Positions 6,128 to 56,417 of a stretch of DNA of 64,000 bases are shown here, piece after piece. The position numbers were made by a program, and so were the translations under genes. The DNA is taken from contig NC_088300.1 of the NCBI RefSeq assembly GCF_032854445.1, forward strand, positions 23,727,608 through 23,791,607, given 5' to 3'. Below the pieces are notes generated by a model that had not been told where the DNA came from, did not search any database, and saw nothing but the letters and a program-made list of their open reading frames with translations. This stretch comes from Liolophura sinensis. Lineage: Eukaryota; Mollusca; Polyplacophora; Chitonida; Chitonidae. Every line of letters begins with the position of its first letter. Position 1 is the first letter of the stretch.

Positions 6128-9100
6128 CTAAGGCGATATGCTCTTACAGGAGCAGTACGAGTCCACTTCAAATGGCTCAAATCCTGTTGGCCAATCTGGG
6201 TCGTCTTTCCATACCATTAGGTACACAATGGACTTTTCTTGTAAACACGAACCACCATTACAGCTCTGAGTGGAAGAAGACCTAACAAAAGAGAGAATTT
6301 GTATGTAAAGATACAGTACTAGCTATTCAGTTGATTAGGGGCTTGGCGATCTGGCATGTCCAGTTTTACTGTTTGGGAACAGAATACGTATCTGTTACGA
6401 CTCTTAAAGATTGGTTTATTGAAATCTATTATAACATTAAAAGATGGGTAAATGTCGGTTACGACGCTAAAATTGACTGATGCATGTCTGTTACAACGTA
6501 AAGATCGGCTTATGAATGTCTTTTAGCGACGTTTATGTTGATTTATTTATTTTATTGATGTTTTACGCCGTACCCAAGAATATTCTACTTATACGACGGC
6601 GGGCAGCATTGTGTGGGAGGATACCAGAAAGAGCCAGTTGAAAACATTTACATTGGTTTATGAATGACGCGTGTGGTGGTTTATAGAGCTATGTTACGAC
6701 GTTTACAATGGTTAATGAATGTCACGACTCCTAAGGCAAATGTTTTGTGTGTTGCTGTTTGAACGCCAGTTAAGCCGACTTACCAAGGTCTATCAACTGT
6801 GCGTTGAGAGTAAATTAGTGTATTAATGCCTGTTGGGGCGACAAGGTCGTTGTATGAATATCTGTTGCGATGACAAGGTTGTGGTATCAATGTCTGTTGC
6901 GACGACAAGGTCGTTGTATCAATGTCTGTCGCGACGACAAGGTCGTTGTATCAATGTCTGTTGCGACGACAAGGTCCTTGTATAAATATCTGTTGCGATG
7001 ACAAGGTTGTAGTATCAATGTCTGTCGAGACGACAAGGTCGTTGTACCAATGTCTGTTGCGACGACAAGGTCGTTGTATTAATATCTATTGCGAAAACTA
7101 GATCGGTGTACCAATGCCTATTGTAACGACAAGGTCGCTGTGTATCAATGTCTGTTACGAAGAGTAGATCGGTGTATCAGTGTGTGTTGTGACGACAAGG
7201 TTGTTGTCCTAATGTCTGTTGCGAAGACTAGATCGGTGTGCCAGTGTGTGTTGCGACAACAAGGTCGTTGTTCCAATGTCTACTGAAACGACAAGATGGT
7301 CGTATTAATGTCTGTTGTGATAACTAGATGGGTCAGTCAGTGTCTGTGGAGAAGGTTAGATCGGTCTATCGGTGATCGAGATACGAATGTGTTAGACTTT
7401 TGTTATGTCTGTTATCTGTTATGTTCAGTTGTACTGCGGACGACCGATACAAGGCTTTACTATGCTTAAACAATTACATGCAAAACGAATGTATACTGCG
7501 ACATCTAACTTGGAATACAAATGATTATAACGGATTAAATGATTAATGAGCTAAGGATTAAAAGAAGTATAACCATAAATTTATTCCAACACATCGCAAC
7601 GTTTAACTAAATTAAAATGAATGTTGCAAGTTACCAGAATCTCATATACATATATGTATGCATGTACTCAGTCCAGAGTTTGCAGACCATTACCTGCAAT
7701 CAGTTCGTGAACAGATATGTGTGTGATCCGCATTATAACGGCTGAATAAACCGAAAGTCATTAAAATTTAGAAGTTCCAGTTTTGCTATTCGTTGTCAGC
7801 GCATAGTGAAATTTGACTATTTTAAAACTAGATATTATTTTTAATTGCTATATTGAAATGTTGTTATCTGAAAGAAATCTATGTGCCCACATTTTACAAT
7901 GAACTGCGAGAGATTTGTTACATATCTAAACAAATAACACATTATCTTAATAATAAATAAATTATTTTTTAATAATAAATGTAATGTTTTACAATTTACA
8001 AAATACAATTGAAAGGAAGATCAATTTATACACAAATTAAAACTTTTGTCTCACTTCAGTATGGTACCGCCTTTCCTAGTCATGTGCTCAAGCCGCAAGT
8101 TTTATAAATTTTTTCAAGCATCCTATATATAGGGTGTACTTAATATATAAAGAATTAATACAAATTGAGTTATATTGTAGACATATTTACTGGGAGTATA
8201 GACACTCTCGCCGTGTCAACACTGAGGATGCCTACACAGTCATTTAAACGCGGCGAATGGCAGAATTCCGGTCCCTACAGGTTAGACTAGATGGAGCAGA
8301 CATGGAGCAAGTCCCTCGGCTTTCAGATCACGTCTCACTTTGACGGTGTTTTTATACTCATTTTGCGATTGGCTGATGTTAAAACCATTAGATGCAAGAC
8401 TGAGTTTAATGAGTCTAAATCTAAATTAATGTAGGACAGACTTAAACACCGTATGCATGTTTATCGTAAAAAGTGATTGTCTTTCTAGTAGAACTAGATA
8501 GCTTTTCTAGCCAGTTTCAAGTTCAACTCCCTAATTATTATCTGTATCTCATATTCACTTATAACAAAATTTCATTTTAATCATTTGTTTTCCTTTTAAT
8601 TCATGAAAATTCAAATAGCTCTTTGTTCCTTGAATCCCTTCTTCATTTGTAACAAATACACATATGACCTTAACTATCTGTTTTTATAACTGAATGAAAG
8701 CTCGCAATTATGCTCTTTGTTATTTGAATCCGTCCTTCATTTATTCCAAGCATTTATCAGAATAACCATTTTTATATAAATGGATGAAATTTCAAGATGT
8801 TCCTTGTTATCTGATTAATCAATTAATTGTTCGTATAACTAAGTGATAGAAAATAATATGTCCACGACTTACCCACAAATTCCTTTGTGGACGTACTGAT
8901 ACACGTCTTCGGAATCAAAGTGGACAATGTCCCTGCTCTCGCTATTAATATTCATTAGGTTACTCGGAGCTTGGGACAATTCACGGAACCTAAAAACTCA
9001 ACATAGTGCATTACGTACAATCGATAAAGTTGAAGTTTTATAATTTATCCCGACATTTTCGTGCACTTTTACAATGCTCTTTTCCCTGCACTTTACAAAA

Positions 9101-9803
9101 GACTGAAAAGTTTTCCATTTTTTTACCACGTTATGTCAGACGCCCTGACATAATATAGACAAACTGTGTTATTATATTTCCATGAAAGAACTCCTATGTG
9201 CAAAGGATATCTATAAACATGGATTTCGATGCAATCATGCATTTTCACTTTACATTTTCACGACATTTCAATCATGACATTTCAGTTAGATTTTACTCAA
9301 CAGATCAAATTGCGCATACTACTGTTGGAAAGCTATGAAAACGATGTAAGAGCTTACGTTGGACAGTGCAGATCCCCATCATGTTCGACGTTGGGAAATT
9401 TTTCTGGCCTAATCCCTTTCTCAATCTCTGGGCGAATCGCGGGGTTGACTGGGCGAACAGGCTTGCCTGGACGAATGCTTTCCTTTTTCAGCTTAGTGTT
9501 TAATTCGTTGGCAGTTTTCTTGTCCAAGAACAGACCCGGGAAAGATTTCATGAGCTCTTTAGCTATGAGCTTGTTATCCCGTACTTTATACGTTGTTGAC
9601 AAACTGGGCCTGGGTGATTGGTGTCGATGACCTTCACGTAGCCAAGCAAAGGGCACGCTTGGCACATATCTACAGACCCGCTCTGGTATGTTGATAGTCC
9701 TTGTGTAACGTTTTGTTCTGTTGACACACCTTTCTTTTGCTGGTGGCCCTTTTCCGAGCGCCACTACGACAAGAGCTGACAAGACACATATCTTCAAACC
9801 CAT
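6128..9803 (-). CDS. Secreted Spatzle-like cystine-knot cytokine, copy 1
   Basis: Three exons, read on the minus strand: 9803-9358, 8989-8873 and 6281-6128, giving 238 residues with both introns in phase 2. The ATG directly follows a polypyrimidine acceptor (ttttcaacag), so the 5' UTR must lie in an upstream exon. Residues 1-17 form a signal peptide (MGLKICVLSALVVVALG). Next come C26 and C44, the FPGLF motif (88-92), a linker of repeated RP dipeptides (about 110-133) and DGDLHCPT at the exon 1 end. Exon 2 carries IVHF...VYQYVHKGIC. Exon 3 carries C195, C200, LMVW and the terminal YCSCK (C231, C233). Cysteine order and spacing fit the Spatzle/NGF-type cystine knot: an early Cys, a Cys about 40 residues on, two close Cys, and a final C-x-C. 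IL-17 is the alternative, but it lacks the full six-Cys knot. Intron 2 (2.6 kb) holds a minisatellite. That the exons are real is very likely; the family name is inference. Confidence 0.88.
6541..6636 (-). mobile_element. SINE family A tail fragment
   Basis: Reversed (TAAA)n and tail block with acgccgtacccaagaat and atacgacggcgggcagc. It lies in intron 2 of copy 1. Confidence 0.65.
6830..7340. repeat. 32-bp minisatellite in intron 2 of copy 1
   Basis: About 15 imperfect units built on gacgacaaggtcgttgtatc plus aatgtctgttgc, drifting toward the right end. It is intronic and has no reading-frame role. Confidence 0.85.
8480..8860. repeat. Degenerate tandem repeat of about 115 bp
   Basis: About three loose copies of a unit with ctctttgtt-c/a-t/c-ttgaatcc and cttcattt, in intron 2 of copy 1. 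Confidence 0.4.
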
Positions 9804-11837: not shown

Positions 11838-12222
11838 CCCCTAGTGTACTTCATGTGTAGCCCGGTACAGAATGCCCGAGTGTATTTCATGTGTACTTCA
11901 TGTGTAGCCCAGTACAGAATGCCCGAGTGTGCTTTATGTGTGGCCGTGTACAGAATCCCCGAGTGTGCTTCATGTGTAGCCCAGTACAGAATCCCCGAGC
12001 GTGCTTCATGTGTGGCCGTGTACAGAATCCCCGAGTGTGCTTCATGTGTAGCCCAATACAGAATGCCCAAATGTGCTTCATGTGTAGCCCAGTACAAAAT
12101 CCCCGAGCGTGCTTCATGTGTAGCCGTGTACAGCATCCCCGAGTGTGCTTCATGTGTAGCCCAGTACAGAATCTCCAGGTGTGTTTCATGTGTAGCCCAG
12201 CACAGAACCCCACACATTCTTG
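11838..12222. repeat. 36-bp minisatellite
   Basis: About 11 units of ttcatgtgtagcccagtac plus agaatccccgagtgtgc. The 36-bp period keeps frames open on both strands, giving repetitive 12-residue pseudo-proteins that should not be annotated as genes. Confidence 0.9.
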
Positions 12223-15767: not shown

Positions 15768-15930
15768 ATATTTATTTATTTGATTGGCGTTTACGCCATA
15801 CTCAAGCATATTACAGTTATCCGACGGCGGCCAGCATTATGGTGGGAGAAAAGCGGGCAAAGCCCGGAGAAAGCCCACGACCATCCGCAGGTTGCTGATA
15901 GACCTTCCCACGTAACCTTCCCACGTCACA
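15768..15930 (-). mobile_element. SINE family A, 5' truncated
   Basis: Reversed tail and central block adjacent to a family B SINE. Confidence 0.7.
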
Positions 15931-17674: not shown

Positions 17675-19865
17675 TCAAAATATCCCGCGACAAGAACAAT
17701 ACGAGTCCACTTCAAAGGCGTCGAAGGTGACAGGCCAAGATGGGTTGTCGTCATCATAGACTAACAGGTAAACCACAGACTTCTCCTGAAAACACGATCC
17801 CCCGGAACATCGAGAGCCCGATTGTTGCCCGGGCTTCCTGGAGAAGTAAGAGAAAACATATACAGCGAATGTGGAACAGACTACACAGTCTAAAAATAAA
17901 AATAATACCCTACACACTAGTTCGTATTAGAAAGGTAGAAATCATTGTATTCTGTGAATTTATTAAAAAAGAATATATTATGTTGTTATTACAAACAATC
18001 ATGTGTAATAAACCCGGTTTCCTCCCACCATAATGTTGACAACAGTCGTATAAGTGAAATATGCTTGAGTACAACTTAGAATACCAATCAAATAAATAAA
18101 ATAAATAGTAAATTAAACAATTAATAAATAAATATATAATCATGTGCTTTATATAGTTGATATATTCTGTTATTACAACAAAATATTTTGGTTGGTGAAA
18201 CGGGGTATTGTGTTGTCCATAAAATAATACTATGTTTCCGTGACACAATATTGGGCATTACTCAGAAAAAAAGGATACTATGTTAAATACAACAGATTGG
18301 TTTTTTACAATATATAAAATTACTATGTTTACTATTGTAAACACCTCTCTATAAACACTTTCACATGTCCATAGGCTTGTTACACTTAACATCACAAAGT
18401 CTTGTTTAATGGATTACGTCTATATACTGAAAATATCTGCCAAAATACTATTGAGATATTTTTCACCACAGTAAAGACGTTACTGTAAGACACAGTAATA
18501 ACTAAACATGGTCTTTATTAATAACCACGGAGACGTTTATTAGGTGCAACGGGAACACGTTTGTAAACTAAACACTTGTTGAACAACTATCATTCCTATC
18601 GGTGTAGTGGTGGGCGAGCTAATGCAGCACAATAACCCAGGAACCTCTCATCAATGTGATTGCTGTGAGTGCAAGACGATCCCCCAGGATCGTCCAGGTT
18701 TTCTCCGACCATAATACTGACAGCCGTCGTATAAGTGGCATATTCTTGCGTTCGGTAAAAGTTTATTTACAATACTTTTACACATTTGTATGTCCCCCAT
18801 TTATGGGAAGCATGCATTGGTAAGTCCTGATCTTAGCCGGCTAAGGCATGATATTCCACTTAAGGCACTGAGACGTTTCAGACTTTAGGCACCCAAGGCC
18901 TTGATTATATGGCAGTTAAGCAGTAATGGCAGTAATGGCTAATAAAAATTCTTGGTAGTTCTTACACACAGGTGCCCTTGTGGTAAAATTGATACACCTG
19001 CTCCTCGTACATGTGTACTATTGTACGCATCTCGTTCCCCACATTCATTGTTCTGTTTGGGGCTTGTTCAAAGTATCGATTCCTGCAGATAATGAGAACA
19101 ATCAAGTAAGCATTTAGATACGATGATTAATTTTAAAGGATACTTATAAACTGCAAGTGCATATATTTAATGATTTATTTGTATCTATATTTTCTGTCTA
19201 TTTTTTTTTAAATACACTCGACAAATTCATCTGTTAATTTAAACAGAAAATCTGTTGTCTGAGTGATGCTAGGATGTATTCTGTTATTATAACACAATAT
19301 TTTGTCGTATTCAACATAATCAACAGAATCTTTATGTTGAATTAATTGAATATGTGTCTTGTGTTTAAAAGAATAATCTGCTGCAAATAACAGAATACAT
19401 TCTAGCATCACCCATATAACAGACTTTCTGTTAAAATTAACAGGCGCCTGTCTGTCCACCTTATACTAAAGAATTAACAGGTGTGTTAGAATAGAACAGT
19501 TGAAGTATCAATACTTACGTTTGACAATGTAGATCGCCATCATAATTCGTGTTTCGGCCTCGTTTATACCCCCGGGATTTTGGGGATATGTTTAACTTTT
19601 CCACCTCTTCTCGCTTGTAAAAAATCCCAGGAAAAGTTTTTCTTATTTGGTTTGCCGTTTTTCTTTCTAACGACATGGCAGATAGCGCACGCAGAGGGGC
19701 GTTTGGACTGCTCGCGTGCCGGAAGACGAACCTAGGGCAGTTAGGAATGGGTAGGGTTATGGTTCTGGTATAAGACTTCCCCTCCCTCTGACACCGCCCA
19801 CGAGCCTTGCCTTCGCTGATGCCCATGGTAACATAACACCATACCACAGCAATAATAAGAAGCTT
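17675..19865 (-). CDS. Secreted Spatzle-like cystine-knot cytokine, copy 2 (initiator Met in an unseen upstream exon)
   Basis: Exons on the minus strand are 19865-19519, 19082-18966 and 17837-17675, both introns in phase 2, giving 207 residues plus an initiator Met. The first exon opens after acceptor tactttcag and reads directly into a hydrophobic leader (KLLIIAVVWCYVT). No in-frame ATG precedes it, because an in-frame TGA lies just upstream. If one Met comes from an earlier exon, the Cys pair falls at residues 26 and 44, exactly as in copy 1. Further features are FPGIF, DGDLHCQT (Gln replaces the usual Pro), IVHM...VYQFYHKGTC, then C-SGGSC, YLLVY and YCSCR before the stop. Copy 1 is its closest relative in the window. 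Intron 1 carries a MITE and intron 2 carries SINE fragments. AATAAA at 17608-17603 lies 67 nt past the stop. The family call is the same inference as for copy 1. Confidence 0.86.
18012..18108 (+). mobile_element. SINE family A tail
   Basis: Tail block and (AAAT)n within intron 2 of copy 2. Confidence 0.65.
18601..18762 (+). mobile_element. SINE family A, internally deleted
   Basis: Head-derived block (cccaggaacctctcatcaat) fused to the tail block (cagccgtcgtataagtggc); the centre is missing. It lies in intron 2 of copy 2. Confidence 0.55.
19231..19443. mobile_element. MITE with 58-bp terminal inverted repeats
   Basis: The left arm 19231-19288 and right arm 19386-19443 are near-perfect inverted repeats (both outer ends read ctgttaatttt/a inward) around a 97-bp core, with no coding capacity of note. 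The element lies inside intron 1 of copy 2. A terminal-inverted-repeat DNA transposon derivative is the best reading. Target duplication was not resolved. Confidence 0.7.
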
Positions 19866-21385: not shown

Positions 21386-21658
21386 GAGCCTCCGTGGCTC
21401 AGTCGGTTAGCGCGCCAGCGCAGCGTAATGACCCAGGAGCCTCTCACCAATGCGGCCGCTGTAAGGTTCAAGTTTAGCTCATGCTGGCTTCCTATCCCTG
21501 CGGATGGTCGTGGGTTTCCTGCGGATGGTCGTGGGTTTCCCGGGCTCTGCCCGATTTCCTCTCTCCATAATGCTGGCCGTTGTCGTATAAGTGAAATATT
21601 CTTGAGTACGGCGTAAAACATCAATCAAATAAATAAATAAATAAATAAATAAATAAAT
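21386..21658 (+). mobile_element. Full-length SINE family A
   Basis: Begins with the tRNA-like head gcctccgtggctcagtcgg (A box) and a B-box-like ggttcaag. The central ggatggtcgtgggtttcc is tandemly duplicated. It ends with the tail block and (AAAT)n. Best reference copy in the window. Confidence 0.85.
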
Positions 21659-21894: not shown

Positions 21895-23830
21895 CCTTAT
21901 GTGTCTACAATATGCACTAGCCACAGGACGTGTATGTCTGCAATACACAATAAACACAGGATATGTGTGTCTACAATATACAATAAACACAGGATATGTG
22001 TCTACAATATACAATAAACACAGGATATGTGTGTCTACAATATACAATAAACACAGGATATGTGTGTCTACAATACACAATAAACACAGGATATGTGTGG
22101 CTACAATATACAATAAACACAGGATATGTGTGGCTACAATATACAATAAACACAGGATATGTGTGTCTACAATACACAATAAATACAGGGTATGTGTGTC
22201 TACAATACACAATAAACACAGGATATGTGTGTCTACAATACACAATAAACACAGGATATGTGTGTCTACAATATACAATAAACACAGGACATGTGTGTCT
22301 ACAATATACAATAAACACAGGATATGTGTGTCTACAATATACAATAAACACAGGACATGTGTGTCTACAATACACAATAAACACAGGATATGTGTGTCTA
22401 CAATATACAATAAACACAGGACATGTGTGTCTACAATATACAATAAACACAGGATATGTGTGTCTACAATATACAATAAACATAAGATATGTGCGCATAT
22501 AATATGAAATAAACACAAGATATGCAATACAATAAACACAGGATATGTGTGTCTACAATATACAATAAACACAGGATATGTGTGTCTACAATATACAATA
22601 AACACAGGGTATGTGTGTCTACAAAATACAATAAACACAGGATATGTGTGTCTACAATATACAATAAACACAGGACATGTGTGTCTACAATACACAATAA
22701 ACACAGGATATGTGTGTCTACAATATACAATAAACACAGGATATGTGTGTCTACAATATACAATAAACATAAGATATGTGCGCATATAATATGAAATAAA
22801 CACAAGATATGTGTGTCTACAATACACAATAAACACAGGATATGTGTGTCTACAACATAAAATAACATAGGATGTGTGTGTCTACTATACACAATAAACA
22901 CAGGATATGTGTGTCAACAATATACAATAAACACAGAATATGTGTGTCTACAATACACAATAAACACACGATATGTGTGTATACAATATATAATAGACCC
23001 ACATGATGTGAGTGTCTACAATATACCATAAACACAGAACGTGTGTCTACAATATGAAATAAACATAGGATGTGTGTGTGTACAATATACAATAAACACA
23101 GGATATGTGTGCTTAAATTACAAGATAAACACAAGATATGAGCGTCTACAATATACAATAAACACAGGATATGTGTGTCTACAACATACAATAAACACTG
23201 GATATGTGTGTGTCTACAGTACACAATAAACCTAGGATATGTGTTCCTACAATATAAAATAAATACAGGGTAAAGTGTCTACAAAACATAATAGCACAGG
23301 ACATGTGTGCCTACAATACACAATAAAAACAGGATGTGGATAAACCCAGGATATGTGTGCCTACAATACACAGTAAACACAGGGTATGTGTGTCTACAAT
23401 ATACAATAAATATATGATATATACGTCTAGAATATACAATAAACACAGGATGTGGATAAACACAGGATATGTGTGCCAACAATACACAATAAACACAGGA
23501 CATGTGTGCGTGCAATTCCAAATGAACACAGGATGTGTGTGCCTACAATATACAATAAACACAGGATATGCGTGCCTACAATATACAATAAACACAGGAT
23601 ATATGTGCCTACAATACACAATAAACACAGAATATGTGTGCCTACAATATACTATAAACACAGGATATGTGTGTATACAATACACAATAAACAAACGATA
23701 TGTGTGTCTACAATACACAATAAACAAACGATATGTGTGCCTAAAATATACAATAAACACAGGATATGCGTGCGTGCAATTCCAAGTGAACACGGGATAT
23801 GTGTGCGTATAATATTCAATAAGCACAAGA
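21895..23830. repeat. Large 33-bp minisatellite
   Basis: About 58 units of gatatgtgtgtctacaatat plus acaataaacacag over 1.9 kb. Units are most uniform at 21.95-22.85 kb and worn toward 23.8 kb, where variants with tgcctac and gtgcgtgcaattcc appear. A variant block (gtgcgcatataatatg) recurs at 22491 and 22778, a higher-order repeat of 287 bp. The 33-bp period leaves long frames open on both strands; these are artefacts. Confidence 0.95.
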
Positions 23831-23888
23831 TAATTCTGCTTTGGCCGTAATTAAGTCAGCAGGTTTGTCAGGTACCAAATGTGCTCAT

Positions 23889-32045: not shown

Positions 32046-34668
32046 ATGCAGAGTTATCTTCCTTTAGCCCTCTGCCTGGTTGTCATGACAACAGTCTGCT
32101 GCAGTGACGCTTCAGTCAAACTTCTGGAGAATTTTCTTGAACGGCTTCAGAGTGCAAGGTTTAGACAGTGCTCAGCGAGGAAATGGATCAAATACAAGAT
32201 TGATGTGGATATGACTCTAAAAGTGTGCAAACGTCCTAACTTCTCACCCCCAAGGTTGTCTCGGCGACAGAGTTTCCAGATCAAAAAACTCTTTCCCGGA
32301 ATGTTTCTGTCTTGCCTCCAGTACACAAAACTCACACGGAGAACTGAGTCATGGAATATGAATGATGGAGATATGTGCTGCCCAACGTAAGTATCGAATA
32401 TGGTTAAATCCAACCAGTTTTATTTTTTAATTATCCAACTCCTTCTGTAGACTCAAAGACCAATTGCATCGCATGCTATTGTTCATACTTAAACATTCAT
32501 TCATTAAGAAAACATGCGTAAACAATGATATATCTGCAAATGGTTATTTCAGTGTATAACGTGGAAGAACAAAAAACTGCACAGTTAACCTGCATCTAAG
32601 GAAAAAAGAAAACAAATAATATAACACGAGTGTTATTGAGGAATAGGGGTGATAACAAACCTAAGCGGTCACGGGCCTTTTTCTGACGTGCTTAGTAACT
32701 ATAAACCTACTTTTAATTGGGAAATCTTGCGAGGCCATACGTCATGTTAGAGCAACCGGAAACACGATGTGGGGCTACTCATATGCGAACATATGGTTAA
32801 TAGGCAAGACAATGTTCGGGTGACGTAAGCGGAAATAGCTGCGCTCTCGAGTTATAAAAATAACTCGCGTCTGATTGGTTAAAAGTGATAACATGGCGGC
32901 GTTTGAGATTGTCTCCATATGCGCGATTGTGCTTACATAGATCTGTGATATCTGGTCTGTGCGAACCAAAAAAATTACAAAGTTATTCTGTTCAAACTTT
33001 CTGTGAGTTTCTTTATCTAAGCATATATTTGGTCTAGTGTTGTTTTTTCATTTAAGTTCGATCATACTTTTCCAGCGTTAGGCATTTGTTTCGTGCTGAA
33101 TAACGTGATAATGTTTGACTAAACTCAATGGATTTTTATTATTTAATATGATAAATGCACGGAAAGATGATCCCTAAATGCTGGCATTTAACATTAAGTT
33201 TCGTTCAATAGTGTTTTACATGTTTTCTATCCCTACAGTGTCAAGTCGGATCCTGTAAAAGAGGATACTCTAGTAAACGTTTTGGGAGAGACGAAAACAC
33301 TCGTTCATCTGGACTCGGTAGACATGTACCAGTGGATAACTTATGGAAGTTGCGCGTGAGTACCCACTAGCTATATTTCAGTTAGAGATTGCGTCAGAGA
33401 TTATACGCCACACAGATATTATTTCCAACTCTAAACCAAATCCATATTCAGTATAGTCTTGGACAATGATTACAGATATAGCTTTCGAAACCTCAAGCCG
33501 TATTTTATAAAGTAAACGTTTAATCAATGTTTTTCTATTCAAGAAGCATTTATACATTCATTATACATACAATGCAATATAGATATAATGTACATATACA
33601 ATATTCAGTTATACATTTTCCACCACGTTCTTACTTGGATTTCTTAACCTGAGAAAAATATAACACAAAGCAATATATCTATCAGTGGAAGACTTATCTT
33701 TAAAAATGCATCGGCTATTAGTTAACCTCGAAACCACGTGAAGCTCTTACTTGTCTGAATAACCCTCGGTTCCTTCACAAGCTTAGTGTCGAGAGCTTCT
33801 CGACTGGAGTGCAGTGGACAGTCTTTCTGAACCGTTCTAAAACTTCAAAAACACTTGGCTGCTCAAAACGATGAACATAATGGGGAATCTTTTCCGCCTA
33901 ACGTATTTCGAGCGAAAGCTTTGTAGTGTGTTGTTCATTTCTGTCTTTTCGGTAACGTTTAGTGAACAAACTGGTAAGTTTAACGCAGTACACTTTCATT
34001 ACAAGAGACTGGTGGTCAAGTCAGTTTGGATCTGATGGATGATTGCGCGTGAAAAGCATCTTCAAACCAGCATTGGTTTGTTGGTTTTCCGCTTGTGAAT
34101 CTGTCTACTGTAAATGTCTGAGCGCATGTCATGTTGCGAGGAGCCAATCAGAGCTACCTCACGACATGTATATGTTGTTGTTGTTTTTGGAACGTTTTGA
34201 ATGATCTGTTATGGGGCTGTCAGCTTGAGGCAAGGCAACGCGAGGCAGTGCAAGGTAAAACTGGGATTCTGTTACTAGTACACACAGATGTCCGCTTTTA
34301 TTTCTCTGTAAGAAACGGCTATTCAAACTAGTAAATATCCCATACAAATTCGATAAACTGAAAACTCAAGCTACATTTCATCAACCATGACTTGCTACAG
34401 TCTGCAAATTGTCACATTGTAGTCGATGTGTTGATTCACGTCACTTTGCTATGCAACTTTTTCTGCATTCTCAGTTAATTACAAATTACAAACAGATGTG
34501 TGTATGCTTTTATCTTTCAGAGAACCAAAATGTATCTCTACTGATGGGACATGCGTTATTGAGAAGACTACAAGGTTCCTTTTGGTCTGGGACTTCAGTA
34601 ACCCAACCTTGCCATTTTCGTACGACGCTTTCGAAATTCCTACGTACTGCTCTTGTAAAAATTTCTGA
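32046..34668 (+). CDS. Secreted Spatzle-like cystine-knot cytokine, copy 3
   Basis: Exons are 32046-32386, 33239-33355 and 34521-34668, giving 201 residues; donors are GTAAGT and GTGAGT and both introns are phase 2. The ATG directly follows the acceptor ctccgttttag. A signal peptide spans residues 1 to about 20 (LPLALCLVVMTTVCC). Then come C42 and C61, FPGMF (83-87), an unpaired-looking C90, and an LTRR dibasic stretch (97-100) that could be a processing site. Exon 1 ends NDGDMCCPT (C111, C112). Exon 2 ends LVHLDSVDMYQWITYGSC (C152). Exon 3 has C157, C164, FLLVWD and AFEIPTYCSCKNF (C196, C198). The LLVWD...F..F.IP.YCSC ending resembles the terminal strands of arthropod Spatzle proteins. It is the first plus-strand member and heads the 3-6 subfamily. 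No canonical polyadenylation signal was seen close to the stop. Confidence 0.9.
33871..33973 (+). other. Possible signal-peptide exon inside intron 2 of copy 3
   Basis: An ATG opens 34 codons containing a hydrophobic run (SVLFISVFSVTF) and ends at a strong donor G|GTAAGT in phase 1. It lies between exons 2 and 3 of copy 3 but cannot splice in frame to that exon 3, which needs phase 2. It may be the first exon of another transcript, a relic, or chance. Confidence 0.22.
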
Positions 34669-38793: not shown

Positions 38794-39532
38794 CCAATTG
38801 ACAAACACTCTGGGCTGACTGCATTTTGGAAAGTTCCCAGGGCATGTACATCAGCCTATTTTGTATTCAAGCGTATATATTGAAAACTGGCCTATTCATC
38901 ATTCAGTATTCACTTAATTAAAAAAATTATGAATAACAAATATTGGTACGCCATTGGTTATGTTGGTACGACATAAAAAGTGGACTAGCGCATAAGTAAG
39001 CAGTTTTATACGTGTGCATCAGGAAGAACGAGATACATAAAAGCACCTGAGGCCACTCAGGTTTGACTCCTTCGGAAACACCTGCATAGTGTGATCGTAG
39101 CCAAAACTGCAAGGAACTCGAATCTTTCGTTGTTACCAAGAAATAAGCGACATAGGAAATGGTGAGTCTGTATTGTAAAATAGACAAAGGGAAATAAATG
39201 CAATTGCGGCGTTATGTGCAAGAAAAATACAGCATGATACCCAATAACTCAAGCGTAAAAGTATTTATTTACTCGTGTAAAAGTATGTACATAGAAATAT
39301 CAACTGGATACTAATGTGAAGGTGTTGATTTTGCGTAGTTTAATTCAGCGAAAATACTGACTTCTAGAGGAATGTCTAATTTTCCTTAGGTTAACGTGAC
39401 GCTGGTTCATCACCAGCCTTTGACAGCGGATATTCAGCTTCCCTTTCTTTTGCTGTTTTCTGTGGGCTTACGTCAAAATACTTGCATCCTAGATACCAGT
39501 GAATTGTTTAGCTATGGCTAATGCTCGTATGG

Positions 39533-39640
39533 TTATTTATTTATTTATTCATTTATTTGATTGGCGTTTTACGCCGTACTGAAGAATATTTCACTTATAC
39601 GACGGCGACCAGCATTATGGTGGGAGAAAACCGGGCTGAG
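39533..39640 (-). mobile_element. SINE family A tail and centre
   Basis: Reversed (TTTA)n tail and central block about 500 bp before copy 4 exon 1. Confidence 0.65.
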
Positions 39641-40132: not shown

Positions 40133-42000
40133 ATGACTAGTTTTGTTCCTTCCCTCCTTTGTGTAATGTGGGTAACATTTACCAGTATCACCTCCCAACG
40201 GGACGTTACGGTTGGTGAGCATCTGCTTTTACCCTGGAGTGTGGGATCAGGAAGATGTTACAGACGAATAATGCTCACGAATCTTAATGCTCAATTCTGC
40301 GAGAGGCCTTACCTTAACAAGGAACAAAGCCTCAAAGTGATGAACCTTTACCCGGGCCTGTTTACTTCACAACGCGAGTCTCGCTTAGTAGAAGAGTTTC
40401 ACTCAGTAAATGTAAAACGCGAAGGCGATGGCGATGACGATGGCGATGGCGATGTCTGCTGCCCGACGTAAGTGAAGAATATACTGAATTCGCGACATAA
40501 AGCATTCGACTTTTATTGATGTAAATAATATTTACTTCTTTATTTGACTCAAGAACATTTCACTTATACTACGGCGGCCAGCAGTATATACTGGGGAGGA
40601 AACACGTCCAGAGAGGAAGCCAACATGGACTGGGTCACAGGCGCCTCGGCCATTGCGCCACGATGGCACGCTAACTAACTCGGCCACAGAGGCTCTCGAT
40701 GGAAATAATAAAGTCCGCATCATGCAGCCTTCTTCTCCTGCTATGCGTGGGAACGTCTGCCAGCAACGTGTGCATGGTCGTGGGTTTCCCATAGGCTCTG
40801 TCCAGTTTCCCTGCACCATAAGTAAAATTTTCTTGAACACGGCGTAACACACCAACCAAATAGATATAATATAACATATTATATAAAAATATATTTAAGT
40901 TCACCGTAGACAGCTTCGTTATAGACTAGTACGTCTCGCATCAGCCATGTATTTATACAAGCCGTAATATGACATTTCTCGCAGTGAAAATTTATGATGC
41001 GGAGACGTATTTTTGAATAGCTGCAATGAGAGGAACTCGGCATGAGTTGTGGACTCACAATGACCGCAATGGTGAGAGAGGCTCTTGGGCCACTGTGCTT
41101 CACTGGCGCGCTCACCACAAGGTGTTCCGGGGGTGACCTTTACATGATTCACAACCGGACATGTTCACAATTCACAACCAGACATTTTCTCAGTTCACTA
41201 CCAGACATGTATTAAGGATTCAGTAATACTTAATATACTTAACAGCTAATTGTCATCTATTCCATGTATCTTTCATCCGACAATCCAATGAGATGTTTTT
41301 TTTTTATCTGTAGCCGTAAATGGATGGAAAGACCCAGGAAATTGAGGAACGTGTCAGGACAAATGAAATGGATTGTTCACCTTTATGCTATAGATTTGTA
41401 CCAGTTCGTGCAATGGGGAAAATGCTTGTGAGTATGAGTTTGTCAATCGGTGTAAGTAACAGCACAGCACTGTGAAAGCTTGGCTGCATGATTAAGCTTT
41501 GGCGGTTAAGTGGTAATTAACATGCGAGAAGCTGCCCTAATAAACGTCAAGAACAATAATCTCATAAACATCTATCAGTCATTTTGTTGTTGTTGTTATT
41601 TAATCTGAATTATGACCAGATGAATGTGTAGTCATGATGGCTTCCTCTTCGGCCGGATGGTCTGCGGACGGTCGTGGATTTCCCCTTTTGCCTGGTTTCT
41701 TCAAATCATAAAGCTGGCTGCCGTCGTATAAGTGAAATATCCTTGCGTACGGCGTAAAACACCAATCAAATAAAAAAACATAGATAAATCAATTAATATA
41801 GTCTGTAAGTGATTATTACCTATCTATACAATGTCACTTGTTTCAGGCATTCAAAATGTAAGAGTGCAGAAGGGATGTGCATGGTTGAAACGACTATACG
41901 CTATCTGCTGGTATGGCATTGGAAGTCGAAAGTCAAGTCCTGGACATTTACTTTTGGTGCCTTTCCGATTTCCACCTATTGTTCCTGCAAGAACGTGTAA
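40133..42000 (+). CDS. Secreted Spatzle-like cystine-knot cytokine, copy 4
   Basis: Exons are 40133-40467, 41314-41427 and 41847-42000, giving 200 residues with phase 2 introns. I chose the ATG that abuts the acceptor ttctttccccag rather than one 27 bp upstream, because the upstream one lies before that acceptor and the chosen one starts a clean signal peptide (MTSFVPSLLCVMWVTFTSIT). Then come C42 and C56, YPGLF (73-77), a short acidic Asp-Gly run (98-107) encoded by a gatggc-type microsatellite, and GDVCCPT (C109, C110). Exon 2 contains WIVHLYAIDLYQFVQWGKC. Exon 3 contains C154, C161, YLLVW and STYCSCKNV (C195, C197). Introns hold SINE fragments in both orientations. A TATA box and candidate leader exon lie about 3.2 kb upstream (36835-36924). 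AATAAA is at 42416-42421, beyond a SINE in the 3' flank. Confidence 0.9.
40536..40866. mobile_element. Two SINE family A fragments head to head
   Basis: 40536-40698 is in minus orientation (tail to head) and 40735-40866 is in plus orientation (body to tail), making an inverted pair inside intron 1 of copy 4. Confidence 0.65.
41632..41790 (+). mobile_element. SINE family A, 5' truncated
   Basis: Body, centre and tail in intron 2 of copy 4. Confidence 0.7.
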
Positions 42001-45012: not shown

Positions 45013-46024
45013 TATAATTGTTTAAAAGACCACTTGTCCAGACGTTCAGACCCATCAGCGACAACCTATTGATACAATCGCTGCCTTCACAGCTTTTCAG
45101 ACAATTTGATAGCGTTTAGCTTGCTTGTGATTTTCGTTTCTGTGCGATTGTAAATACTGACGTTATTTTAAGGACGAAGACATTAACTGATGTGTTTAGC
45201 GGTTGTCTGCTAACTGTCATTAAAACTAGATTTTTGTCCTGACATGTTACATTGTGCTTACAGTATTACGTTGGTTTTCAGTATATTTCCTTATTGCATT
45301 ATTTTATCTTGTGTTAAATGTGAGCTTATGTCCAGAAATGTTCCTTTTATTCTTTGTTTGATTTAGACCACGTTTGTAGCAGGCAAAGACAGCTTATTGA
45401 GATTCCCATGAATTTTATCACTAACTTCTGTCCTAACCCTTACATTGACGAGGATCAAAGCTTCTTATTGATGCAACTTTACCCGGGTCTCTTCATTTCA
45501 GAAGACCAAATTTCTTCACAAGAACAGTTTCACTTACAAGACCAGCCTCACGGACGCCCCCTAAGGTCATGGCGACATCACCATGGCGATGTCTGCTGCC
45601 CAACTCAAGTGAAGAGTATGATAAAATTATGCAACACGACATAAATAAGAATCTGGCCGAAAAGGAGAGACACAGATCAGTGGACAAATTCATTTTAATC
45701 CACAGGAAGCAGACACGGCTGACTTACATTCAATATTACCAACCACCAGTCTAATGTGAAGTTTTATATCTTTAGCGTTAAACAGATGGAAAAACCATGG
45801 GCATTAAGGAACGTGTCAAGAAAAAAAGAAATGAGTTGTCCACCTAACCAGTTTAGATTTGTTACAGTTCCTACAAGGGGGGGGAGGGGGGCGATGCTTG
45901 TGAGTATGAGTTCAACATGAGTAATTGACATTCACAGCAGTGTGAAAGTTTGGCAAATGTATTACCCGGTTAACACGAGTAAGGTTAAGCTGGTTTAAAT
46001 GCAAAAGCATTTATGTATAAATGC

Positions 46025-46890: not shown

Positions 46891-47583
46891 AAAATTTGAG
46901 TGACGTAGTCGTGTGGAGTGATGTTATACTTCATAAGGCAATGGGATGCAAGAATCGATCCTAAGAACCCAACTTACATGCGGTGTATGCCTCAGCCTGA
47001 CACTAATGTGATTATAAAGTTTGCTCCCCACCTCGCTACTGTTATGTTGTGAACGCTAGTTTTTCCCAACTCGCTTCCATTTAAACCGGTTGAAATTTGA
47101 TCCACTTTAAATTTTAACCGTGTGAATGGGGTATAAGATACAGCTTTCAACCGTATTAATAATTAACATACGAGAATATACATGACCAAACGTGTAACAA
47201 CAACAACCCATTTAGCTTGAGACTGCTGAGCCGGTGATAGTTTCTTTGATGTTTTCTAAATCTCAGGTGTTGACCTTTGTTTTAAATACATATAACATTA
47301 CATGATAAATGTTAATATAAGGTTTTATATACATAGTCATGTAGATAAATATTACATTCTGTGAAATGCTTTATGTTTCAGGCAGGGGCAGTGTTCAAAT
47401 CTTGATGGAGAATGCATAATGGAAGCGACTATACATTATATTCTTGTATGGGAACTGCGCTCAAACAACAAATGCTTGCGATTCTCATTTGATGCTTTTG
47501 AAATTCCTACCTACTGCTCCTGCAAAAGCTTGTAGAGCAAAAAGGATGCGTGGTCTCACACCCGCGCAAGTTACCTGCACTTT

Positions 47584-49257: not shown

Positions 49258-49428
49258 CCCGGCCGTATGTGGGAAGGTCTGCCAGCAACCTGTGGATGGT
49301 CGTGGGTTTCCCCCGGGCTCTGCCCGGTTTCCACCCACCATAATGCTGGCCGCCGTCGTATAAGTGAAATATTCTTGAGTACGGCGTACAACACCAATCA
49401 AATAAAAAAATAAATAAATAAACAACTA
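49258..49428 (+). mobile_element. SINE family A, 5' truncated
   Basis: Well-preserved body, centre and tail just upstream of the LINE remnant. Confidence 0.75.
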
Positions 49429-49614: not shown

Positions 49615-52025
49615 GTTAAACTCAACTCTACTATTTGATAGTCAATATACAGCTTAGAGAATTAATTAAGGAAAATCAAGAAAAACTGGAAAACATAGAA
49701 GGCAAAGGCTTGAAATGCGAATTAGTTAAATGTAAAATTAGAGACTTTACGACTAGGTTACCAAAATTCAAACGAAAAAAAGAAACCATAACGGAACAAA
49801 GAAGTACTGAGTATTTTAGAAAAAGAACAAAATGAAAATCCCAATCCAGAAAATCTATCTACACAAAAAACTGACCAAGCAATTTTTCGTAACAAAGCCA
49901 GGTGTTATGAGTACGGCGAAAAAAGTTTAAATCACCTTTTTGGACTAGAAAGAAAAATATTCTTTCTAACTATATTATTAATTAACTTTTTAACTATATA
50001 TAATTAATCTATAACCAAATACTATGATGCACTATGATGCAGAGAAAAAATTAGGACTATATCACAAATACAGTGGGAACATTGAACCCGGAGAGAAAGT
50101 TCTATTAATCACTATACTCTAGAAACGATGAATGACAACTAGAAAAAATTGCAGATTTTCTTGATCAACAACAATGTCCCCAAAATCAGTGAATAAGATA
50201 AAGTTAAATGTGAAAGACTATTCTCTGAAAATGAATGCAGAGAAGCATTGAAACGGCTCCAAAATAAGAAATGCCCCTGTTGTGATGGTCCACCAGCAGA
50301 ATTTTAAAAATTAAATTGAAATGATGTTTGGGGTAGACAGCCTCATGTATGCTGACACTAAAGGACATCTTTCTGTGGATTACAAGAGGCATTATATCAC
50401 TTATAGCGAAACAAAATAAAGATAGAATCTGCCTTTAAAGGTGGAGCCTAATCAGTCTGTTGAATGCAGATTAAAAGATTATGGCGACAGTTATAGCAAA
50501 TGGATTAAAAGCAGTTATACCATCAATTATTCATGAAGACCAGACCGGCTTCATGTAAAACCAACGCATAGGTGAAAACATTCGACTGATCTTTGACATT
50601 AAAGAACAATGCCACAAAATTAGTAATCCTGGGCTAATAATGTTCCTGGACTTCGAAAAAACATTTAATAAGCTTAACTGGGTTTATTTAAAAAAATGTT
50701 TTGAAATTATTTGGACTTGGAGAAACTTTAATACAATGTATAAACACTCTGCAAACCGTTTATACGCTTGGGATACACTTTTCAACCAATGTCTGTGAAT
50801 CAATGATAAGAAACTACAATGAAAAATTAAAAGATCTTAAGCGGATTCTCATCACATGAAGAAAACGTAAGTTAAACCTGCAAGGTAAAATTCTTGTTAT
50901 TAAGTCTTTGGCAATGTCAAAACTTGTGTGCTTATTTTCTGTATTACGCACTCCAGAATGGGCCACAAATGAATATGACAGATATATACTTGATTTTCTG
51001 GGGGATGGGAAAAAACATAAGGTAAAATATTGTTCCATTATAGGGTACTACATTAAATATATGTATCAATTATTTGATGAGAATTGTATACTTTATTTCA
51101 CAGATCAGTAACATACAATGTATGGCATTTCTGTTGAGGATAACTGTCTGTCTTATTTTATGGCACGCCATCCCATTTTCCTGGAAAACAAAGCTACAAA
51201 GCAGTGTAATAAAAAATGTACCCCAGGGTTTTTCTGTCTGTTTTAAGGGTAAATGTCACAAAAAACATACCTGGTATCTTGTTACAAAAGTTGCCATTGA
51301 ACCTCCTGGGTGCAGTGAGATGGAACAGTGTACTCATGCTAGACTGTGTCTTGTTGACATAGCTCTGTGTTTTTGAACAAAACCTGTGCAGTTTGTAAAC
51401 TTATGGACTTTCCACATGAAGCTGTTATATTGTATATTACCGTGCAAGAAAGTTCGGATTATGATTAATCAAGTTGATTTTGTACTATTTTGTACGAAAT
51501 GCGGTGACACAGAAACTTTAGATCATCTCTTACACGATTGCCCAATAATATTCATATTTTGGAAGAATGGTGGAAAACTGACATAGAAGAGATAAAATAT
51601 TTAAATAAAGAACTATTATACTGGGGGCAGAACTATCCAAAAGAAATACCCTTTTAAATTATTGTATATTACTAGGGAGGTGGCTCATTTACAAATGTAG
51701 CTTTGAGGATAAAGAACAGAATTTTCAAACCTTTTCTATACGAAGTAAAAAAAAATTTAACCTTTAAAAGTATATATGTATGAAATTCTGAAGATTGTCA
51801 AGAAAAATGGATACAACTATGTACTTCACTTGAGACTAGGTTTCATTTACAAGAAGCAAGAGTCATTTGATGTTTATTTTCATTCTCTATTGTGAGTTAA
51901 TGAATTCTGCATGAGGTGGTATCTTACTTCAAATGTCTGTTCTAAATAAGCTGATGTCATTTACATGTACATATATGTTCTATAATTGATGACCTGTAAA
52001 ATGTAAAAGAGAATAAAGATCAGCT
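49615..52025 (+). mobile_element. Decayed, internally deleted LINE (L1/Tx1-like)
   Basis: Frames broken by stops and shifts encode recognisable non-LTR retrotransposon fragments in order. They include CYEYGEKS...LFGLERK near 49.9 kb, then ATVIANGLKAVIPSIIHEDQTGF and LIMFLDFEKTFNKLNW (reverse transcriptase finger/palm) at 50.48-50.68 kb. Then come LNLQGKILVIKSLAMSKL (50.87-50.94 kb) and CGDTETLDHLLHDCP near the 3' end. The segment that should hold the catalytic YADD is missing. The element ends with AATAAA and an A run near 52.0 kb. It cannot be active. Confidence 0.75.
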
Positions 52026-52074: not shown

Positions 52075-52084
52075 AATTTTACAG

Positions 52085-53942: not shown

Positions 53943-53949
53943 GTTTCAA

Positions 53950-56417
53950 ATGAAAAACTTTCTCCGCTTTGCTGTCATCTTGGCGTCGTTGTTGCTCCTC
54001 AGTAATGGAAGCTTATTATCACAGCAAGATGGTACAACGAATCACCGTAAAGCCTCGTGTTTTCAACCAATCAGTTATGACTTCCGCTTTGTAATCAGTT
54101 TCCAAGTATGCAAATCTTTAATCAGTTTACCTAGTTTTAACCGTTCAGCTAGCTTACAGTTACAACGGCTATATGGAAACATTTTCAAAACTCGCAAAGA
54201 AATCCTTGGTTTTGATTCCCAAGTCAATGACGGCGATCTCTGCTGTCCGACGTAAGTACAATGACGCAGGCATAAATGTATTGTAAATCATACATCGATA
54301 TGGTTAAATGAATAAATGATATCGATCAATAGTGTTATGAAATTAATCATTGATTAAGATAAATGAATTATTGATATCGAAAGATGGCCCTATTTATATA
54401 TATGGATATATGAATCTTTTAGCCGTTTGATAATTACGGCTGCCTGCTGAAATCTGGCAATAATTTTTACCGAAAGTTTCAAAAGCTTGCCGGAACTGAG
54501 TAAAACAAATGAAAGTTTGCCAGATTTGCGTTATAGGTGTTATACTGATATTACGCAAGAGCATTTTACTTATACGAGCGCGTTCAGCATTGTGGTAGCA
54601 AGCAAAAGGGCAGAGCCAGGGGGAAACCCACGACCATCCGCAAGTTGCTGAGGGCCTTTACACGAACGCCCGGAGAGGAAGCCAGCATGACCCATTAAAA
54701 GATTGCCTTGTCAGTCAATAAAGTTAACTACTTAACAAAATAGTGATTTTTATGCCAGTTCATCCATGTTCATGTAGTTCATGGTTTATTAAATCGTTTC
54801 TTCAGGCAATTCCTCACTTCCTCTCAACAATCTTCATCGTTCAACTTAGAGAAGAATTTTACTCCCTGTATCTGATCTATAACTTTATCATTATCCCTTT
54901 TATAGAGAACCCTTGTATCTGACCTATTTATTTATTTATATATTTATTTATTTATATATTTATTTATTTATTTATTTATTTATTTATTTGGTGTTTTACG
55001 TCGTTCTCAAGACGTAGAAAGAACCATTGTATCTGACCTTAAACTTCTCATTATCTGTGCCATGGAGACCCTTGCATCCGACGGATAACTCTATCATTAT
55101 CTGTGCTATACAGAACCCCTTTAGAAAAGAACCCCTGTATCTGATCTTTAACTTATCATTATCTGTTCTATAGTGAGTGAGTGAGTGAGTGAGTGAGTGC
55201 GTGAGTGCTTGGGATTTAACGTCGTACTTAACAATTTTTCAGTCATATAACAACGAAGGAGTCCCTAGAGTGCATGTAATGACCCCTTGTTGCAGGGCGG
55301 ATTTCCACCGCTCTTTCATCTAATGCTACTTCACTGAGACCCCTTACAGAAGGCAAGTAGGCAGCCCCGCCTGAGCCATTATACTGATATGGGCCGACCA
55401 GTCGCTGCACTATCCCCTGAATACTGAAAGCCAAACAAGGAAGTTACAACTTCCTCTTTTAAGGCCTTGAGTGTGACCCGGCTCATGATTGGCTTTGGAT
55501 TTGCCGCCCGAAAGCGGATTCTCTACCAACTGTGCTATCGGGGCCGCCCTGTTCTATAGAGAACCCTTGTATCTGACCTATAACTTGATCAAAATTTCCT
55601 CTATAGAGAACCATTGCATCTCACCTTTCACATACTTTATCATTATTTGTTGTAAAGAGAACCCATGTATCTGACCTATGTAATTATCTCCACCTGCGGA
55701 CGGTCGGGTGTTTTCCCAGTTTCATGCCACAATAATGTTGGCCGACGTGGTATAAGTGAAATATTCTCGAGTACGGCGTAAAACACCAACTAAATAAATA
55801 AAATTTTAAAAATATAATTATCTCTTCTTTAGAGAACACTTCTTTGAGAACATCCCCGAACTTGTCAATGTTAATGGACAATTGAGACAGTTGGTTCACC
55901 TAACAACCCTGGGGATGTACCAGTGGGTAAACAGAGCCATCTGCAGGTAAGATATGTGGGTTATCTTTCCCTCCTCACCTCACTGTTTGTGAGGCCTTGG
56001 AGACTGCAAGTGGTCAATCGCGCTTGTGCGGCCACTAATATGGCATGCAAATCTGTACTTCAGGCGTGGGATATCTTCACTTGCTAAAGGCCTGTCGTTT
56101 ACAGCCGTTGTATAAGCGTGAAACTTATATTGGCGTTACAATACCAGTGAATAAATAAACTGGTTGTGTCTCTTGAGCTTGTAAAACTTGAATTTCCACA
56201 AGCATGTCAGCATGCTGTTTTTGTACATTTATTCTGTTCTAGGTCATGTTATTTTTTTCTCTGTTACAGCGTGGAAAACTGTTTGACTGGTGTTGGTACT
56301 TGTGTCATGGAAAACACAACCCAGTATTTGCTTGTGTGGAATTTTGGTTCCGTATCTTCCCCTGTCTTATTCGAGGCTTTCTCCATCCCTTCTTACTGTT
56401 CCTGTAAAAATATTTAG
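53950..56417 (+). CDS. Secreted Spatzle-like cystine-knot cytokine, copy 6
   Basis: Exons are 53950-54251, 55833-55946 and 56270-56417, giving 187 residues with phase 2 introns. The acceptor (tattccgcag) is 7 nt before the ATG. A signal peptide spans residues 1 to about 20 (FAVILASLLLLSNG). Then come C37 and C54, and YGNIF (75-79) in place of the YPGLF/FPGLF motif, so the Pro-Gly is lost. Exon 1 ends NDGDLCCPT (C98, C99). Exon 2 contains LVHLTTLGMYQWVNRAIC (C138). Exon 3 contains C143, GTC (C150), YLLVW and IPSYCSCKNI (C182, C184). AATAAA at 56466-56471 lies about 50 nt past the stop. Intron 1 (1.6 kb) holds a degenerate tandem repeat into which a complete SINE has inserted. It is the shortest member and has the most divergent exon 1, but it is intact throughout. 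Confidence 0.9.
54545..54692 (-). mobile_element. SINE family A, partial
   Basis: Reversed tail, centre and body in intron 1 of copy 6. A lone reversed tail with an ATTT tract lies at 54925-55015. Confidence 0.6.
54850..55680. repeat. Tandem repeat in intron 1 of copy 6
   Basis: Units of about 45-60 bp with agaacccttgtatctgacct and taactttatcattatctg, interrupted by a SINE tail and a complete family B SINE. Confidence 0.6.
55174..55548 (-). mobile_element. Full-length tRNA-derived SINE (family B) with target-site duplication
   Basis: The head on the minus strand reads like a tRNA with A box TAGCACAGTTGGTAGAG. The body is shared with 15423, 23889 and 47873, and the tail is (ACTC)n. The element is flanked by ctgttctatag at 55163-55173 and 55549-55559, an 11-bp target duplication. 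It inserted into a tandem repeat within intron 1 of copy 6. Confidence 0.8.
55690..55803 (+). mobile_element. SINE family A tail next to copy 6 exon 2
   Basis: Centre and tail end only about 30 bp before the acceptor of copy 6 exon 2, so the element sits in the branch-point region of that intron. Confidence 0.65.

What the first reader, a model, noticed from the sequence alone, without database searches (positions are those of the whole stretch)
6128..56417. Six-member array of Spatzle/neurotrophin-like cystine-knot cytokine genes
Seen: six loci share a three-exon, phase 2/phase 2 structure, a signal peptide in the intact copies, and a six-Cys pattern (C ~40 C 3-7 C 4-7 C ~30 C-x-C) ending YCSC. 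Known: Spatzle and NGF-type ligands have this Cys order and end in a conserved C-x-C strand. Inference: this is an expanded cluster of Toll-ligand-like cytokines in a non-arthropod, probably a mollusc, where such ligands are poorly characterised.
Basis: partly seen in the sequence, partly recalled or inferred. Interest (0 to 1): 0.88.

Follow-up and report, generated by a model that had tools for sequence, protein, structure and literature searches.

The report
Chiton cluster of Spätzle-like ligand genes
A chiton genome holds a cluster of about ten related genes, with two more far away on the same scaffold, for apparently secreted cystine-knot proteins that most resemble the insect immune signal Spätzle and horseshoe-crab coagulogen, which suggests that molluscs may trigger their Toll receptors with ligands of their own.

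Summary
The window has six copies of one gene: five open, one decayed (E). Each open copy has three coding exons, two phase-2 introns, and a mature domain C-x38/39-C-x4-10-C-x4-6-C-x30-33-CxC. The array runs beyond both window edges: ten loci over about 122 kb, plus two 19 Mb away on the same scaffold.

Pfam Spaetzle (PF16077) is the best match for all five window models. Of nine complete models, one passes the curated cut-off and one has no Spaetzle match. No Cys-fixed shuffle matched anything (0 of 9). Among solved structures the family profile finds only coagulogen (E 0.0019). Neurotrophin and IL-17 genes lie elsewhere in the genome.

The assembly fits the chiton Liolophura sinensis (609 Mb, 632 scaffolds). 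Spätzle genes are barely documented outside arthropods; one clam homologue is cited.

Most likely these are secreted, protease-activated Spätzle/coagulogen-type ligands of the genome's many Toll-type receptors (103 TIR matches). Family placement is well supported. Toll binding, processing and expression are untested.

The parts
9358..9803 (-). Gene A exon 1: signal peptide, prodomain with Cys pair and FPGLF motif, DGDLHCPT
   Evidence: model; donor CCAAC|GTAAG
8873..8989 (-). Gene A exon 2 (117 nt, phase 2 at both ends)
6128..6281 (-). Gene A exon 3, ends YCSCKSISP-stop
   Evidence: whole model PF16077 E 4.6e-5
19519..19826 (-). Gene B exon 1 from an internal Met; the reading frame goes on upstream to an acceptor-like site, so the true start probably lies in a 5' exon not located
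18966..19082 (-). Gene B exon 2 (117 nt)
17675..17837 (-). Gene B exon 3, ends YCSCRGIF-stop
   Evidence: whole model PF16077 E 4.2e-7, 30.9 bits, above the cut-off of 27
32046..32386 (+). Gene C exon 1
33239..33355 (+). Gene C exon 2 (117 nt)
34521..34668 (+). Gene C exon 3; alone predicted as a two-strand beta hairpin (mean pLDDT 78)
   Evidence: whole model PF16077 E 0.0047
40133..40467 (+). Gene D exon 1
41314..41427 (+). Gene D exon 2 (114 nt)
41847..42000 (+). Gene D exon 3
   Evidence: whole model PF16077 E 1.2e-4
45324..45604 (+). Copy E exon 1 remnant: no start or signal segment seen in this frame, no GT at the donor
45776..45899 (+). Copy E exon 2 remnant, 124 nt, frame broken
47382..47535 (+). 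Copy E exon 3, open, ends YCSCKSL
53950..54251 (+). Gene F exon 1
55833..55946 (+). Gene F exon 2 (114 nt)
56270..56417 (+). Gene F exon 3
   Evidence: whole model PF16077 E 0.015

Best explanation
This is a tandem array, in a chiton, of genes for secreted pro-proteins whose C-terminal half is a Spätzle/coagulogen-type cystine-knot domain. Exon 1 encodes the signal peptide, a short prodomain (a Cys pair and an FPGLF-like motif in most copies) and the first knot Cys (D[GN][DN]-x-[CH]C[PQ]). Exon 2 encodes the stretch up to the second Cys. Exon 3 encodes the C-terminal beta hairpin ending [YF]CSC. Proposed working: the pro-protein is secreted; proteolysis at basic residues just before the DGD-x-[CH]C motif frees the knot, which dimerises and acts as an endogenous cytokine for Toll-type LRR-TIR receptors, of which this genome has many. 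Gene structure and family resemblance are shown. Secretion, cleavage, dimerisation, Toll binding and an immune role are inferred. Probability of the family placement about 0.9; of the Toll-ligand function about 0.6.
For: PF16077 Spaetzle is the top Pfam match of all five window models, and B is above the cut-off. It matches 8 of 9 mature domains at E up to 10, while 0 of 9 Cys-fixed shuffles (three each of A, B and D) match anything. The only solved structure found by the family profile is coagulogen 1AOC (E 0.0019). hhalign against single sequences gave coagulogen fragment 89.6, Drosophila Spätzle C-106 11.8, this genome's own neurotrophin 0.2 and IL-17 0.7 percent. The Cys order is that of Spätzle (spacings). 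Exon 3 folds alone as a beta hairpin (pLDDT 78), and its non-significant PDB neighbours are mostly cystine-knot factors, including Aedes Spz1C from a Toll5A complex and coagulogen. Hydrophobic N-termini are present in 8 of 9 complete models, and a dibasic or R-x-x-R motif ends within 10 residues of the DGD motif in 6 of 9. The genome has 103 TIR-coding matches; of two checked, one has a clear LRR ectodomain plus TIR and the other TIR with weak LRR.
Against: Only 1 of 9 complete models passes Pfam's cut-off. In two models another Pfam family scores better: the gene at C6:23.70 Mb (DUF2155 0.16, Spaetzle 0.46) and the gene at C6:23.81 Mb (DUF6013 0.015, no Spaetzle match). No Spätzle chain was found in the PDB by the family profile at E up to 10, and a single-sequence search with B found only an unrelated protein at E 0.063. 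The third-to-fourth Cys gap (3-6) is close to that of coagulogen (5), not Spätzle (13), and the first Cys of Spätzle's CC-x-C ending is absent. Three of nine models have no basic site near the knot. No CLIP-domain protease match was found, though that control rang nowhere. There is no expression, binding or structure of the whole domain.
Confidence: 0.62

Rival explanations
1. Coagulogen-like proteins: the knot domain does not signal, but after cleavage polymerises into a clot or gel in haemolymph or mucus.
For: The best solved-structure match by profile is coagulogen, and the Cys spacing of the middle part is close to coagulogen's. Pfam Coagulin is the second match for B (E 0.0054).
Against: PF16077 scores above Coagulin for B, and none of the other eight complete models lists a Coagulin match. 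Multiplied, divergent copies (35-59% identity) suit ligands better than one bulk clotting substrate. Coagulogen is itself related to Spätzle (PMC2586362, passages read: Spz4 29% identical to it), so the match does not decide function.
Confidence: 0.13
2. Neurotrophin-type growth factors that act through Trk or p75 receptors in the nervous system.
For: Same superfamily and C-x-C ending. One of this genome's neurotrophin-like frames also has a CCPS start (L055).
Against: No NGF profile match listed for any array member scanned, at E up to 10. The NGF profile does find separate genes on C1 and C8 (best E 1.6e-20).
Confidence: 0.07
3. Cystine-knot ligands of the Spätzle kind used outside immunity (development, reproduction, mucosa), or antagonists/decoys, the array having grown by ordinary birth and death of genes.
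For: A decayed copy (E) and old, divergent duplicates are typical of birth-and-death families. Two members have long Ser/Thr/Asn-rich tails after the knot. Spätzle proteins also have neural roles in flies (PMC2586362, passages read).
Against: Nothing here points to a particular non-immune role, and the large TIR repertoire favours Toll partners.
Confidence: 0.16
4. IL-17 cytokines or another unrelated Cys-rich secreted family resembling Spätzle by chance.
For: IL-17A entries head the non-significant fold list for exon 3.
Against: No IL17 profile match listed for any array member scanned, while the same profile finds 12 IL-17 matches in this genome. 0 of 9 Cys-fixed shuffles match any Pfam family.
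Confidence: 0.02

Closest known systems
Spätzle family (Pfam PF16077; Drosophila Spz1-6, Aedes Spz1C)
   Same: Signal peptide, prodomain, C-terminal six-Cys knot in the same order, F-x-I-P-S-x-C-x-C ending in several copies; PF16077 matches 8 of the 9 domains at E up to 10.
   Different: Chiton third-to-fourth Cys gap 3-6 against 13; ending [YF]CSC against CC-x-C; an extra Cys just before the first knot Cys (CCPT/CCPS) in 5 of 9; 8 of 9 complete models below Pfam's cut-off.
Coagulogen (PF02035, PDB 1AOC)
   Same: Only solved-structure match of the profile (E 0.0019); close spacing of the middle cysteines.
   Different: Only B matches the Coagulin profile, below its cut-off (17.1 against 25 bits); coagulogen has extra cysteines near its C-terminus.
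Single mollusc spätzle homologue reported from the clam Paphia undulata (Yu 2015, cited in PMC7773633; original not held, not read)
   Same: A Spätzle homologue in a mollusc.
   Different: One gene reported, in a bivalve; here a 12-locus family in a chiton with a 10-locus tandem array. The sequences could not be compared.
Daphnia Spz7/Spz8 expansions (PMC2772990, passages read)
   Same: Lineage-specific multiplication of Spätzle genes, some in tandem.
   Different: Crustacean; that paper recovered no Spz from the lophotrochozoan genomes it searched.
Neurotrophins (PF00243)
   Same: Superfamily-level knot and C-x-C end.
   Different: No profile match listed; separate neurotrophin genes exist in this genome.

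Membership tests
Spätzle (PF16077) | Match to the curated profile above its gathering score (27 bits) | tested here: inconclusive
   B 30.9 bits passes; the other 8 of 9 complete models do not: A 24.4, D 23.1, two at 21.4, C 17.9, F 16.3, one 11.6, one no match. Best match for all five window models and for 7 of the 9.
Spätzle (PF16077) | Six knot cysteines in the order C..C..C..C..C-x-C | tested here: met
   9 of 9 complete models, some with extra cysteines; the gap between third and fourth Cys is shorter than in Drosophila Spz.
Spätzle (PF16077) | Secreted pro-protein: signal peptide plus prodomain before the knot | tested here: met
   Hydrophobic N-terminus in 8 of 9 complete models (B's start not found); the knot motif begins at residue 94 to 273. 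Judged by hydrophobicity only; no SignalP run, secretion itself not shown.
Spätzle (PF16077) | Proteolytic release of the knot domain | not testable with these tools
   Basic motif ending within 10 residues of the knot in 6 of 9; none near in A, the 23.79 Mb gene and the 4.35 Mb gene.
Spätzle (PF16077) | NGF-type fold and disulfide-linked dimer | tested here: inconclusive
   Of the knot only exon 3 was folded: beta hairpin, pLDDT 78; PDB neighbours not significant. Whole domain and dimer not run.
Spätzle (PF16077) | Binds and activates a Toll receptor | not testable with these tools
   Toll-type receptor genes exist in the genome; binding needs experiment.
Coagulogen | Match to PF02035 above its cut-off (25 bits) | tested here: not met
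   Only B matches, 17.1 bits; 18.2 bits for its domain alone.
Coagulogen | Polymerises after cleavage by a clotting protease | not testable with these tools
   Needs biochemistry.
Neurotrophin (PF00243) | Match to the NGF profile | tested here: not met
   None listed at E up to 10; the same profile finds other genes in the genome.
IL-17 (PF06083) | Match to the IL17 profile | tested here: not met
   None listed at E up to 10; the same profile finds 12 matches elsewhere in the genome.

The most novel reading that the evidence does not exclude
Chitons, and perhaps molluscs at large, hold a diversified set of endogenous Toll ligands of the Spätzle/coagulogen kind, grown alongside a greatly enlarged Toll receptor set, so that protease-activated ligand sensing through Toll is older than arthropods and in this lineage became a many-ligand, many-receptor code.
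Probability: 0.33. Interest if true: 0.82.

Novelty: new variant of a known kind. Interest (0 to 1): 0.62.

Why it matters
It is unsettled how mollusc Toll receptors are switched on. Four oyster TLRs gave no significant response to 13 microbial ligands in HEK293 cells, and the authors raised an endogenous Spätzle-like ligand (PMC3788107, passages read); other papers cited in PMC7773633 are said there to show direct binding by mollusc TLRs. A 2009 survey found no Spz in the lophotrochozoan genomes it searched (PMC2772990, passages read), and a 2020 paper knew only one clam homologue outside arthropods (PMC7773633, passages read). If these chiton genes are Toll ligands, the Spätzle-Toll pairing would predate the split between arthropods and molluscs, and the question can be tested with the twelve loci located here.

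Tried and rejected
Rejected: NGF and IL-17 membership (profiles do not list the array but find other genes in the same genome). Chance Cys-pattern matching (0 of 9 shuffles). Chance open frames (nine complete models share phases and exon 2 length).

Led nowhere: genome-wide PF16077 search found nothing, probably because introns split the domain, and its control rang nowhere. CLIP proteases: no match, control uninformative. Genome-wide Coagulin: three weak pieces off the array, two of them a frame-broken pair on C5 that passes the cut-off only when joined. Prodomain fold: low confidence (pLDDT 54), not searched further. NCBIfam: two weak unrelated matches. Rfam: nothing in the window. Tree of the nine domains: no branch starred; A with B 93/94. 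NG86 dS could not be computed in 31 of 36 pairs, so no dN/dS is claimed. Paper search was too broad: 25 of 8,773 listed, none holding 'spatzle'. The Paphia paper is not held. The main text of the chiton comparative-genome paper does not contain the words Toll or spatzle. Exon 1 of the 23.82 Mb gene and exon 2 of the second 4.35 Mb gene were not found; the latter stretch holds Ns.

Full report
What is there. The window contains six copies of one gene. Five (A and B on the minus strand; C, D and F on the plus strand) splice cleanly into proteins of 238, 195, 201, 200 and 187 aa, each from three coding exons joined by two phase-2 GT-AG introns (B is counted from an internal Met). The exon 1 donor falls at the same place in all five, within the Thr codon after DGD-x-[CH]C[PQ]. 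The sixth copy, E, is decayed: no start or signal segment was seen in its exon 1 frame, it has no GT at the exon 1 donor, and exon 2 has 124 nt with a broken frame; exon 3 is open. In A, C, D and F the ATG sits at or a few bases after an acceptor-like site, so a non-coding 5' exon is likely. In B the coding frame itself runs into such a site, so its start codon is probably in an exon that I did not find.

The array is bigger than the window. A search of the whole genome with gene A's exon 3 found 12 places, all on scaffold C6; two further exon 3 queries found only members of these 12 (5 and 11 of them). An exon 2 query found 6 places, all at these loci. The tool scores only its best candidates, so 12 is a lower bound. 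Ten loci lie between about C6:23,702,710 and 23,824,507 (three on the minus strand, then seven on the plus strand) and two lie at 4.346-4.358 Mb, with long Ser/Thr/Asn-rich tails after the knot. Nine loci give complete models (A, B, C, D, F, three outside the window in the array, and one at 4.35 Mb). Of the other three, one lacks a found exon 1, one lacks a found exon 2 near a stretch of Ns, and one is E. Exon 2 is 114 or 117 nt in 9 of 9 models. In 36 of 36 pairs third codon positions differ most, and synonymous distance could not be computed in 31 of 36, so the copies are old and appear to be kept as proteins.

Organism. G000 has 609,464,459 bases in 632 contigs. The published chiton assembly has 609,495,693 bases in 632 scaffolds (PMC11068029, passages read); the species was later corrected to Liolophura sinensis (PMC12441733, whole text). 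The totals differ by about 31 kb. The mitochondrial stretch reads ND3, ND2, COX1, COX2, ATP6 in order (gene names assigned by me from recall), which I recall as fitting a chiton. Chiton is therefore likely, by two indirect lines.

Family. Pfam's Spaetzle profile is the best match of all five window models: B 4.2e-7 (30.9 bits, above the cut-off of 27), A 4.6e-5, D 1.2e-4, C 0.0047, F 0.015. Of the four other complete models, two match it best at about 4e-4; one matches at 0.46, behind a DUF2155 at 0.16; and one has no Spaetzle match, its best being DUF6013 at 0.015. Scanned as mature domains, 8 of 9 match at E up to 10. Nine shuffles that keep the cysteines in place, three each of A, B and D, match nothing in Pfam. 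A profile of the nine domains finds one PDB chain at E up to 10, coagulogen 1AOC at 0.0019, and no Spätzle chain; a single-sequence search with B finds only an unrelated inhibitor protein at 0.063. Pairwise hhalign gives 89.6% for the coagulogen fragment, 11.8% for Drosophila Spätzle, 0.2% for this genome's neurotrophin and 0.7% for its IL-17. That test leans towards coagulogen, because the fragment used was the one that had matched. The middle Cys gap (3-6) is near coagulogen's (5), not Spätzle's (13). The end reads [YF]CSC where Spätzle has CC-x-C, and 5 of 9 copies carry an added Cys just before the first knot Cys. The safest name is a mollusc branch of the Spätzle/coagulogen group.

Controls in the same genome. 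NGF profile: six matches, three over the cut-off, on C1 and C8. IL17 profile: 12 matches. Neither lists any array member. TIR profile: 103 matches. Of two TIR loci looked at, one has a clear LRR region plus TIR and the other TIR with weak LRR matches. CLIP proteases: none found, but the control rang nowhere, so this says nothing.

Structure. Exon 3 of C with five window relatives gives a two-strand hairpin, mean pLDDT 78. Foldseek finds nothing significant (best E 1.6; 120 matches at E up to 10, 50 shown). Of the 50 rows shown, 46 are by title IL-17A, VEGF, FSH, sclerostin, coagulogen or Spz1C entries, three are antibody complexes whose chain I did not identify, and one is a nuclease. PDB redundancy in IL-17A inflates this. 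Exon 1 gives low confidence (pLDDT 54).

How it most likely works. Shown: gene anatomy, hydrophobic N-termini in 8 of 9 models, knot pattern, profile kinship, and Toll-type receptors in the genome. Inferred: secretion as a pro-form; cleavage at a dibasic or R-x-x-R motif, which ends within 10 residues of the DGD motif in 6 of 9 models; dimerisation; Toll binding. Three models (A and two outside the window) have no such site near the knot, so either another protease acts or some members are not processed.

Known or new. Ten library searches were answered (one search was for the genome paper, one search was too broad to help, and one search did not run). They led to statements that no Spz was recovered from lophotrochozoans in 2009 (PMC2772990), that one clam homologue was known by 2020 (PMC7773633, citing Yu 2015, which I could not read), and that oyster TLRs might need an endogenous ligand (PMC3788107). 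In those listings I saw no paper on a mollusc Spätzle array. The library misses most subscription papers, so this is not proof of novelty. I rate it a new variant of a known kind.

Noticed in passing
window 21900-23832: Minisatellite of a 33-bp unit, about 58 copies; its frames give long spurious ORFs. Others: 32 bp at 6819-7317, 36 bp at 11891-12211, a 39-bp family at 28915-29738.
   Followed up: no
window, at least 12 places on both strands, e.g. 15792-15914, 21545-21652, 35817-35941, 39527-39640, 49266-49388: A SINE-like interspersed repeat of about 120 bp; recalled as widespread in mollusc genomes, not tested.
   Followed up: no
window 51377-51583: A frame with weak Pfam matches to a baculovirus ME53 model (1.8e-4, below its cut-off) and a reverse-transcriptase zinc-binding model (0.035). 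Possibly a decayed retroelement with the frames at 50559-51108, which themselves match nothing.
   Followed up: partly
G000 contig C99, and C632: C99 holds seven mitochondrial COX1 copies on one strand about 15.5 kb apart, beside the single-copy 15,209-base contig C632: probably an assembly concatemer.
   Followed up: no
G000:C6:4347683-4348243 and 4356930-4357640: The two remote family members carry long Ser/Thr/Asn-rich tails after the knot, unlike the array members; in the one modelled the tail has six N-glycosylation sequons.
   Followed up: partly
L055 (G000:C8:27504158-27504373): A neurotrophin-like frame with a CCPS start similar to the CCPT of the array: a possible link between the neurotrophin and Spätzle-like groups.
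   Followed up: no
G000:C13, C11, C4, C10, C12: Many of the 103 TIR-coding matches lie in clusters on these scaffolds: a large Toll or TIR expansion in this chiton.
   Followed up: partly
G000:C5:16733863-16734246: Frame-broken weak match to the Coagulin profile, 43.8 bits with neighbours in the frame; not examined.
   Followed up: no
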